From positions 186,001 through 250,000 of the forward strand of contig JALVYU010000026.1 of the NCBI GenBank assembly GCA_027022365.1: a DNA stretch of 64,000 nucleotides. The letters are read 5' to 3'. Numbering within the stretch: position 1 is the stretch's first letter; each line of letters opens with the position of its first letter. The notes under the pieces are model-generated. The model worked only from the letters and a program-made list of their open reading frames with translations. It did no database searches and was not told the DNA's origin. The position numbers and the translations under genes are program-made. Origin of the DNA: Desulfurococcales archaeon. GTDB taxonomy: Archaea > Thermoproteota > Thermoprotei_A > Sulfolobales > Desulfurococcaceae. Positions 14,496 through 16,774 of the stretch are shown here, piece after piece.

Positions 14496-15207
14496 TTCTC
14501 CCGGGGCGGCTGTCCGCAGAGTCTTATTCGCTATATGTAATGAGTATTATTGACCCTTTTAAAACTTACTACAAATCTTAGTCAAAGCCCTTTTCTCAGC
14601 TTGATGATGAATATCCATGATGTTATATAGATTGCATACGTTATCTTTTCTACTAATAACTAATCTATAAAATCCCCAGGTCTCGCCATAATTATATCTT
14701 AGAATCTATGCTGATTTTCCTAAGCATTTTGAATATCTAACACTCCGTAATAGTTCACAGAATTGATGATAACTCTATGTTTTTGTTTATCAATATGTCC
14801 TTCATCTATAAATGCTGAGATCCAATTAATGAGTATATTGGGACTTTTTCTTATGAATGCCTGTGCTCTCCATAATTTTTGAATTATTTGCACCTAAACG
14901 TCTAAGTGTGTAGTAAAGATATCTTGATTTAACTCTTGCTATATAGACGTGTTTTTGGATGAATATACAATAGTCGGGCTTATCTTCAAAACATCATATA
15001 TGTCTCTGGCAAATGAACTAATTAGTTCAATTGATTTATTAATATATTCTATAATGTAACGTTTTCCTCTATCTCCTTTCTCGACATATATATGTCCATC
15101 TCCGCAAATATGTGCATGAATCCTTGCAAAATAAGGATTATCCATTAAGGACATGTTATTCCCGTTTTAGATAGAATAGGAGAATATAAAGCGGACAGCC
15201 GCCCCGT
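14496..15207 (-). mobile_element. Intron 3 of tRNA-iMet: 712-nt intron in the T loop with a decayed homing endonuclease gene
   Basis: The T arm GGTGG-TTCAAA ends at 15208 and resumes with TCCACC at 14495. Adenines on both sides leave the junction ambiguous among 57/58, 58/59 and 59/60. The intron ends form a perfect 15-bp stem, GGGGCGGCTGTCCGC (15205-15191) with its complement (14517-14503). The interior is AT-rich and contains the remains of a LAGLIDADG gene in the same orientation as the tRNA. The bulge-helix-bulge here is less regular than at intron 1. Confidence 0.88.
14559..15154 (-). pseudogene. Decayed LAGLIDADG homing endonuclease gene in intron 3
   Basis: The first 71 codons (15154-14939) read MSLMDNPYFARIHAHICGDG and then EKGDRGKRYIIEYINKS, a first LAGLIDADG-type motif with its acidic residue and following strands; then a stop. 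The match continues in shifted frames: YIARVKSRYLYYTLRRLGAN, then NWISAFIDEGHIDKQKHRV (second motif), then GFYRLVISRKDNVCNLYNI and AEKRALTKICSKF, ending at a TAA at 14559-14561. At least three frame changes are needed. Intact length would be about 198 residues, like single-chain archaeal rRNA-intron enzymes such as I-DmoI. The product cannot be active as it stands. Confidence 0.8.
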
Positions 15208-15229
15208 TTTGAACCACCGACCTCGGGGT

Positions 15230-15250
15230 GTCCCTGAGGCGGCAGCCTCT
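15230..15250 (-). other. Intron 2 of tRNA-iMet, 21 nt, canonical 37/38 site
   Basis: Between CTCATA and ACCCCG of the anticodon arm lie 21 extra bases forming a GAGGC-TGCC-GCCTC hairpin. The position, one base 3' of the anticodon, is the standard archaeal site. It is separated from intron 1 by a seven-base exon only, so splicing order may matter. Confidence 0.9.
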
Positions 15251-15307
15251 TATGAGCTTCGCGGGGCGGGGCTACCGTCCCTGCTACTACCTTTATTATT
15301 GGGGGTC

Positions 15308-15481
15308 TTATAAAGTTTTATTCTTAGGTGTTATGAGTAAGCCTTTTCTTTTATTGTTAATATAAATTTCGACACTAAGTTCTATCCCTTCTTTCCAGCC
15401 TAAGGCTTCAACTAATTGTTTTGGTAGTGTTATTTCATAGGTGTAATATTTTTGTTTACCTTTCCTCTTTCTAAGTTTCAT
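15308..15481 (-). CDS. Small AbrB-like (SpoVT-AbrB fold) DNA-binding protein inside tRNA intron 1
   Basis: A 57-codon gene. After a basic start (MKLRKRKGKQKYYTY) it reads EITLPKQLVEALGWKEG, then IELSVEIYI and RKGLLITPKNKTL: the swapped-hairpin AbrB pattern with a strand, LPK-x-LVEALGW helix and K-E-G turn. Members bind DNA as dimers and usually autoregulate. GGTGA lies four bases before the ATG, and a TATA-like element lies 20-35 bases upstream. It is transcribed in the tRNA direction, divergent from the endonuclease gene with 83 bases between the start codons. A repressor of the endonuclease is a natural but unproven role. Confidence 0.75.
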   Translation of the reverse strand: MKLRKRKGKQKYYTYEITLPKQLVEALGWKEGIELSVEIYINNKRKGLLITPKNKTL

Positions 15482-15518
15482 TATTTCACCAAGAAATACT
15501 ATATAATCGTAGATAATA

Positions 15519-15560
15519 AATTTATATAGGAATTCTTTACAGAATTCCTAACAGAGGTGA
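15519..15560 (+). promoter_or_regulatory. Endonuclease promoter with palindromic operator and ribosome binding site
   Basis: TATA box ATTTATATA at 15520-15528 is followed at once by a perfect inverted repeat GGAATTC-TTTACA-GAATTCC (15529-15548), then GAGGTGA (15554-15560) and the ATG at 15565. The palindrome covers the bases between TATA and the expected transcription start near 15550, where a bound dimer would block TFB or polymerase. The adjacent AbrB-like protein is the obvious candidate ligand. Confidence 0.65.
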
Positions 15561-15564
15561 AGAA

Positions 15565-16644
15565 ATGAAGCAGTCTATGGGTAATATTATCGCAAATTTG
15601 CTGGAAAATTATGGATCAAACTATCTTAATAAATGGAAATCAAGAGAACATTTACTGGGTAGAAGAAAGTTTTTGGTATATAATGTCGATGAACAAATAA
15701 AGTCAGAAATTCTATTTCTTCTTTATAAAGAACTTCACAACATAAAAACAACTACCTTTAAAGAAGTAAAGTTCTTGAGTAAGTGCTTAGTAATTAGGTC
15801 AACGCATGAGGCCCCGCTATGGTATAGATTAGGCTTAGCATTAAGCGATGGCTCTGTCCTAGGTAAAAGTAATATAATATTCTCTACATCAAAACCACAC
15901 ACAATAGATGCCGTGATGTATGGATTTAGTTATATAAAGATCTACGTAGCTAGATACATGCTAAGTATAAAAACTAACAAGATAATACCTGTTATTAACA
16001 TCGTAGTGAAGGATCCGGATACTGCATTACTTCTAAGACGTATTAAAGAAAACAAACTAGATACGGATCAATTTATAGATGCACTAGTTAATGATAGAAT
16101 GGCGTTGGCACAATTCCTAGCTGGGATAATAGATGGTGATGGAAGTATAGATTGTGATAATATAAGAATATGCATTGATAAACGTGATCCTCTATACACG
16201 ATTTTACAAAAAATCTTTAGAAATAATTTGGTTTATGATGAAAAACGATATATGTTAAGGATAAAAACACGAGCCGTTAGGGAACTAAGCATTTTAGAAG
16301 AACTAATAAATAACATAGTCTCGGAACATAAGAAAACTATGATTAAAAGAATCCTGAGAAAAAGAAAAAGATTCGTTCTAAACAACATCACATTAACAAA
16401 TTATAAAATTAAAGAAATCCTAGACAAACTTGATAATGATGATCTAAAAACACTTACCTTATTTAAATTTAGAAAAAAGCAAAAATATACCTATGCATAC
16501 ATCTCCTTTAACAAAAAGAATAAAAACTATATATTCAGCTTAATTAACAAGCTACTCTATAAAATAGAATCCGTACTTTTCTTAAACCTCCTCGATTCTG
16601 TTAAGGAAGGTAACAGAGAATATGTAATTTATAACAAAGAATAG
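15565..16644 (+). CDS. LAGLIDADG homing endonuclease, intact, antisense within tRNA-iMet intron 1
   Basis: A 359-residue protein with two LAGLIDADG-type motifs: YRLGLALSDGS at about 88-97 (acidic residue D95) and QFLAGIIDGDG at about 183-193. A lysine-rich C-terminal third follows. Two motifs in one chain means a monomeric endonuclease recognising an asymmetric site, here presumably the intron-less initiator tRNA gene. The gene has its own TATA box and Shine-Dalgarno and runs opposite to the tRNA, so it cannot be translated from the spliced-out intron RNA. It is clearly more AT-rich than the flanking genes. The reading frame is uninterrupted, suggesting recent activity or selection. Confidence 0.9.
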   Translation: MKQSMGNIIANLLENYGSNYLNKWKSREHLLGRRKFLVYNVDEQIKSEILFLLYKELHNIKTTTFKEVKFLSKCLVIRSTHEAPLWYRLGLALSDGSVLGKSNIIFSTSKPHTIDAVMYGFSYIKIYVARYMLSIKTNKIIPVINIVVKDPDTALLLRRIKENKLDTDQFIDALVNDRMALAQFLAGIIDGDGSIDCDNIRICIDKRDPLYTILQKIFRNNLVYDEKRYMLRIKTRAVRELSILEELINNIVSEHKKTMIKRILRKRKRFVLNNITLTNYKIKEILDKLDNDDLKTLTLFKFRKKQKYTYAYISFNKKNKNYIFSLINKLLYKIESVLFLNLLDSVKEGNREYVIYNKE

Positions 16645-16774
16645 TAGAACTTATCAAAACACTTAGAATATATATTGAGATGGGGAAGGGACGGTAGCCC
16701 CTGCACCTCCCGCGGGCTACCTGGCTGCCCTACCCCGCTGTTTTGCCCCGCCGTATTGTTTGTGGTGTTTTTCG

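What the first reader, a model, noticed from the sequence alone, without database searches (positions are those of the whole stretch)
14496..15207. Intron 3 is a second, dying mobile intron in the T loop of the same tRNA
The minus strand holds a LAGLIDADG gene broken by at least three frame changes (15154 to 14559) with both motifs still readable (HICGDGHI and SAFIDEGHID). It points in the tRNA direction, unlike the intact endonuclease of intron 1. So the two introns are independent invasions at different stages: one with an active-looking gene, one decaying but still held because the intron cannot be lost imprecisely from an essential tRNA.
Basis: partly seen in the sequence, partly recalled or inferred. 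Interest (0 to 1): 0.72.

Follow-up and report, generated by a model that had tools for sequence, protein, structure and literature searches.

The report
Decaying mobile intron in archaeal tRNA
The only initiator tRNA gene of this heat-loving archaeon is interrupted in its T loop by a mobile intron whose DNA-cutting gene has died here but is still intact in sister species, so the rise and fall of a selfish tRNA intron can be followed in related genomes.

Summary
The minus strand holds a single initiator-tRNA (CAT) gene with three bulge-helix-bulge introns. Intron 3 lies at position 59/60 in the T loop and is exactly 15207..14496 (712 nt). Inside it is a LAGLIDADG endonuclease pseudogene (15154..14559) with four frame-shifting indels and one in-frame codon loss; that loss removes one of two acidic residues invariant in motif 2. 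A congeneric species has the same intron at the same site with the gene intact; another has one late frame break. Substitutions on this genome's branch look neutral, while the sister copies show constraint. The intron 1 endonuclease is unrelated and antisense, so the invasions are separate. Both introns differ far less between species than the flanking genes' synonymous sites do, which points to recent spread. Across the order, 10 of 11 members of this nuclease family sit in the same T-loop intron, mostly broken. Other species carry 22-33-nt mini-introns at that site, or nothing. Distant relatives sit beside tRNA genes, often ones with T-arm introns. I read this as a tRNA-homing nuclease family in a late stage of its life cycle: a new variant of a known kind. 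Cleavage and splicing are untested.

The parts
16709..16739 (-). exon 1 of initiator tRNA-Met(CAT), up to position 30
15258..16708 (-). intron 1 (30/31), 1451 nt, bulge-helix-bulge type, with its own LAGLIDADG gene antisense
15565..16644 (+). HEG1, intact 359-aa LAGLIDADG-like protein, antisense to the tRNA; unrelated to HEG3
15251..15257 (-). exon 2, G31-A37 including anticodon CAT
15230..15250 (-). intron 2 (37/38), 21 nt
15208..15229 (-). exon 3, positions 38-59, ending in T-loop TTCAAA
14496..15207 (-). intron 3 (59/60, T loop), 712 nt, bulge-helix-bulge ends with a 16-bp inner stem
14559..15154 (-). HEG3 pseudogene: LAGLIDADG endonuclease with four frame-shifting indels and one codon loss; intact ortholog in a congeneric genome
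14479..14495 (-). exon 4, T-loop U60 to the 3' end with encoded CCA

Best explanation
Intron 3 is a homing element carried by an archaeal bulge-helix-bulge tRNA intron. When intact, its two-motif LAGLIDADG protein would cut intron-free initiator-tRNA genes across the T loop and T stem, and break repair would copy the intron in. The RNA copy is spliced out by the host tRNA-splicing endonuclease, so the tRNA survives. Once fixed, the endonuclease gene loses its purpose and drifts. In this genome it is dead, while the splice-site core is still held by the need for a working initiator tRNA. SHOWN: the position, the shared bulge-helix-bulge ends, the broken frame here and intact frame in a sister species, the neutral pattern on this branch, occupied, mini and empty forms of the same site, and much lower divergence of the introns than of the flanks. 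INFERRED: DNA cleavage, homing as the cause of the low divergence, splicing, and shrinkage into mini-introns.
For: Same-site intact ortholog in G004 (93%, no stops) and one late break in G005. G000 branch 2 synonymous: 9 nonsynonymous plus all the indels but one; sister branches 9:8, P = 0.016 for constraint. HEG3 synonymous differences G000-G004 5/133 against 96/582 in flanking genes (P = 4e-5), G000-G005 8/133 against 230/974 (P = 4e-7); intron 1 14/1450 over all sites. Divergence falls at the intron edges. 24 of 24 distinct T-loop introns keep the same bulge-helix-bulge pairs. 20 of 65 genomes have a T-loop intron: 6 with HEG, 13 mini, 1 of 187 nt. 10 of 11 family members in the order lie in this intron and 3 are fully open. 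Congeneric species G002 and G003 carry a HEG1 of only 36-39% identity.
Against: No cleavage, splicing or transcript data. Reads were not available. The HEG tree largely follows host families, so older steps may be vertical; one family is split only marginally (p-AU 0.0375). Mini-introns could be ancestral rather than shrunken. Most genomes are MAGs.
Confidence: 0.86

Rival explanations
1. The frame breaks are sequencing or assembly errors and the gene is intact.
For: Most of the indels lie in short A or AT runs; raw reads were not available.
Against: Seven flanking genes (about 1,340 codons) align to orthologs at full length without frame breaks, HEG1 is intact, and substitutions on this branch are also neutral-like. 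Most related copies in other assemblies are broken too.
Confidence: 0.04
2. Intron 3 was inherited vertically in the genus; low divergence reflects constraint or low mutation rather than transfer.
For: The HEG tree groups the three congeneric copies and roughly follows host families.
Against: Synonymous sites of HEG3 and HEG1 are 5-10 times less diverged than those of neighbouring genes, and the change in divergence falls at the intron edges. Two congeneric species lack intron 3.
Confidence: 0.13
3. T-loop introns arise by RNA-level or integrase-level events, and the LAGLIDADG gene is a later, incidental passenger.
For: Mini-introns without any gene outnumber HEG-bearing ones at this site. Distant relatives sit beside, not inside, tRNA genes.
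Against: The family is tied to tRNA genes in every archaeal genome where its context was read, and HEG-bearing and mini introns share position and ends.
Confidence: 0.12
4. The broken frame still makes a working product, by programmed frameshifting or as a one-motif fragment.
For: An open 71-aa piece with motif 1 remains.
Against: Four separate frame shifts, loss of an invariant motif-2 residue and a 2:9 substitution pattern.
Confidence: 0.02

Closest known systems
Archaeal rRNA introns with LAGLIDADG genes (for example I-DmoI; Thermoproteales 16S introns, PMC4496867)
   Same: Bulge-helix-bulge splicing, LAGLIDADG gene inside, full, remnant and hairpin-only forms at one site.
   Different: Host is an initiator tRNA T loop rather than rRNA; a nuclease family found in or beside tRNA genes.
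Non-canonical archaeal tRNA introns and tRNA intron transposition (Fujishima 2010, as reviewed in PMC4090602)
   Same: Bulge-helix-bulge introns at non-canonical tRNA positions that appear and spread.
   Different: As far as I know those are short and carry no gene; the review states that the transposition mechanism is unknown. Here a nuclease gene is present.
Bacterial group I introns in tRNA genes with homing endonucleases (reviewed in PMC3984707)
   Same: A homing gene in an intron of a tRNA gene.
   Different: Group I ribozyme splicing; no group I match here.
Intein-type LAGLIDADG endonucleases (PI-PfuI, 1dq3; V-ATPase inteins)
   Same: Nearest solved relatives of the HEG3 profile; Pfam PF14528.
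   Different: Those are carried in protein-splicing hosts; HEG3 is a free protein from an RNA intron.

Membership tests
Archaeal bulge-helix-bulge tRNA intron | Splice sites in two 3-nt bulges flanking a short helix, with exon helix outside and intron helix inside | tested here: met
   Three helix pairs (U54, U55, C56) form in 24 of 24 distinct T-loop introns, a fourth in 11; 16-bp inner stem in this intron
Archaeal bulge-helix-bulge tRNA intron | Exons join to a normal tRNA | tested here: met
   Exons match the intron-free initiator tRNA of relatives
Archaeal bulge-helix-bulge tRNA intron | Removal by the splicing endonuclease | not testable with these tools
   No RNA data
LAGLIDADG homing endonuclease (PF14528) | Profile match over the curated cut-off | tested here: met
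   Intact ortholog 34 bits against 22.5; the broken pieces alone give no hit
LAGLIDADG homing endonuclease (PF14528) | Two intact motifs with acidic residues | tested here: not met
   Met in the intact relatives (invariant GDG and DDE); in this copy motif 2 has lost one D and the frame is broken, so this copy is a pseudogene of the family
LAGLIDADG homing endonuclease (PF14528) | Predicted fold | not tested
Mobile (homing) intron | Occupied and empty forms of one site in relatives | tested here: met
Mobile (homing) intron | Intron younger than its surroundings between species | tested here: met
Mobile (homing) intron | Encoded enzyme cuts the empty site | not testable with these tools
   Needs biochemistry
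Group I intron | Catalytic core | tested here: not met
   No Rfam group I match in the window at gathering threshold

The most novel reading that the evidence does not exclude
HEG3 belongs to a family of LAGLIDADG nucleases dedicated to tRNA genes across archaea. In one order it rides inside a T-loop intron of initiator tRNA. Elsewhere it sits beside tRNA genes whose own T-arm mini-introns may protect them from the enzyme (collaborative homing). Such elements would be a source of non-canonical tRNA introns and, through rearrangement inside a large intron, of split tRNA genes.
Probability: 0.45. Interest if true: 0.85.

Novelty: new variant of a known kind. Interest (0 to 1): 0.68.

Why it matters
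How archaeal tRNA introns are gained and spread is described as unknown in the review literature (PMC4090602). Here the same T-loop site is seen empty, with an intact nuclease gene, with genes at several stages of decay, and with a bare 22-33-nt core. That makes homing as the route of tRNA intron gain directly testable, with intact orthologs and an empty target named. In nine open-library searches I found no paper on a homing endonuclease gene inside an archaeal bulge-helix-bulge tRNA intron; subscription journals were not covered.

Tried and rejected
Group I intron: no Rfam match. Pfam on the separate open pieces gave nothing; the intact ortholog was needed. A Rfam scan of the six DPANN loci found no tRNA, probably because two introns per gene defeat the model; I used a stem-pairing script, which found T-loop introns at four loci. 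Three further T-arm introns (L100, L107, L108) were read by eye only. Horizontal transfer between families: the tree gave only a marginal rejection (p-AU 0.0375) for one family, so I do not claim it. Weak order- and phylum-wide matches, mostly in much longer frames, were set aside as probable inteins or other LAGLIDADG proteins without reading their contexts. The low identity of G000 in the table is an artefact of extension past frame breaks; I used the codon-masked row for the tree.

Full report
OBSERVATION. On the minus strand, 16739 to 14479, lies an initiator tRNA-Met gene in four exons and three introns. Intron 1 (30/31) is 16708..15258, intron 2 (37/38) is 15250..15230 and intron 3 (59/60) is 15207..14496. 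It is the only match to the initiator T-arm sequence in this genome. The genome belongs to a Desulfurococcales group: named records with the same element are Desulfurococcales MAGs, and one family member's genome length equals that published for Staphylothermus hellenicus.

THE BROKEN GENE. The read-through protein of intron 3 matches an uninterrupted 200-aa frame in congeneric genome G004 (93%, E 1.4e-115) and a nearly complete one in G005. Both sit in the same intron at the same site. Aligned to G004, this copy differs by four frame-shifting indels (near 14952, 14880, 14731, 14698), one codon loss at 14807 and one base in the leader; none of these is shared with G004 or G005. The codon loss falls in D-D-E of motif 2, invariant in 15 relatives. 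G005 has one break of its own near the C-terminus. The intact protein is PF14528; its nearest solved relatives are intein endonucleases.

NOT A SEQUENCING ARTEFACT, MOST LIKELY. Seven neighbouring genes align to orthologs at full length and HEG1 is intact. On the G000 branch substitutions are 2 synonymous to 9 nonsynonymous, close to neutral; on the G004 and G005 branches they are 9 to 8, fewer nonsynonymous than neutral (P = 0.016). Reads were not available.

SPLICING CORE. All 24 distinct T-loop introns examined, from 22 to 801 nt, have the same geometry: the T stem outside, U54-U55-C56 paired to the intron's 3' end (A57 too in 11), and an inner stem starting at intron nucleotide 2. The ends of intron 3 are the same in this genome and in G004 while the frame decays.

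INDEPENDENCE FROM INTRON 1. HEG1 is antisense to the tRNA and has no meaningful similarity to HEG3. Its relatives include a 36.5% homolog in G040's iMet locus and 36-39% homologs in congeneric G003 and G002. G000 and G005, about as far apart in flanking genes as G000 and G002 (dS 0.28 and 0.30), share intron 1 at 99%. Intron 3 is intermediate (3-4% divergence). So the two introns have different histories. In G005 it is HEG1 that has a mid-gene break, so decay stage is particular to each genome.

SPREAD. Intron divergence is far below that of flanking synonymous sites (P between 4e-5 and 1e-11 for synonymous comparisons) and changes at the intron edges. Transfer by homing is the simplest reading; it is inferred.

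DISTRIBUTION. Among 65 genomes of the order with a readable site, 20 have a T-loop intron: 6 with a HEG, 13 of 22-33 nt, one of 187 nt. An order-wide protein search found 11 genomes with the family above 75 bits; 10 lie in the iMet T-loop intron and one just downstream of iMet; three are fully open. In Bathyarchaeota and in four genomes of another family (f15) the gene is beside iMet (in one of the four only the iMet 5' part was recognised). In DPANN archaea it lies next to other tRNA genes: three with T-loop introns by script (L097-L099), three more with T-arm introns by eye (L100, L107, L108), one without (L103). Three bacterial relatives lie near tRNA-Met or group I introns. These distant members share ancestry, so the association counts as several rather than many independent cases.

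JUDGEMENT. The finding stands as written, with one correction (motif 2 is damaged) and one open point (why the intron is kept). The wider pattern makes the mechanism of tRNA intron gain testable. No function has been shown experimentally.

Noticed in passing
L072 (G040) 37-2150: The only iMet match in this genome appears split: exon 1 on one strand and the 3' half (with the HEG3 intron) on the other, with a HEG1 homolog between and complementary intron arms. It looks like an inversion inside intron 1, giving a trans-split tRNA, or an assembly error; exon 1 lies at the contig end.
   Followed up: partly
L012 (G033) 487-1530: A broken HEG3 homolog lies about 200 bp downstream of a complete iMet lacking the T-loop intron, followed by what resembles a second tRNA 3' tail and trailer; possibly a fossil left by a duplicated tRNA.
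   Followed up: partly
window 15308-15481 (-): A 57-aa MazE/AbrB-like antitoxin-type ORF lies inside intron 1, in tRNA direction (Pfam PF04014 E 1.1e-6).
   Followed up: no
L026, L030, L036, L050, L073, L074: iMet genes of other genomes carry a third LAGLIDADG class (about 340-390 aa, many with an LAGLIDGDGY-like motif) in a large intron upstream of the T arm, sense to the tRNA.
   Followed up: partly
L035, L037, L050: G033 (both copies) and G008 have a mini-intron in the 3' strand of the T stem instead of the T loop.
   Followed up: no
L139, L142, L148: iMet genes beside the HEG in family f15 have an unusual T stem (AACAG/CTGTT or AATAG/CTATT) and no T-loop intron; whether that protects them is untested.
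   Followed up: no
iMet leader and trailer, window about 16750 and 14470: Leader GGCGGGGC and trailer GCCCCGCC are complementary around the iMet gene in many members of the order.
   Followed up: no
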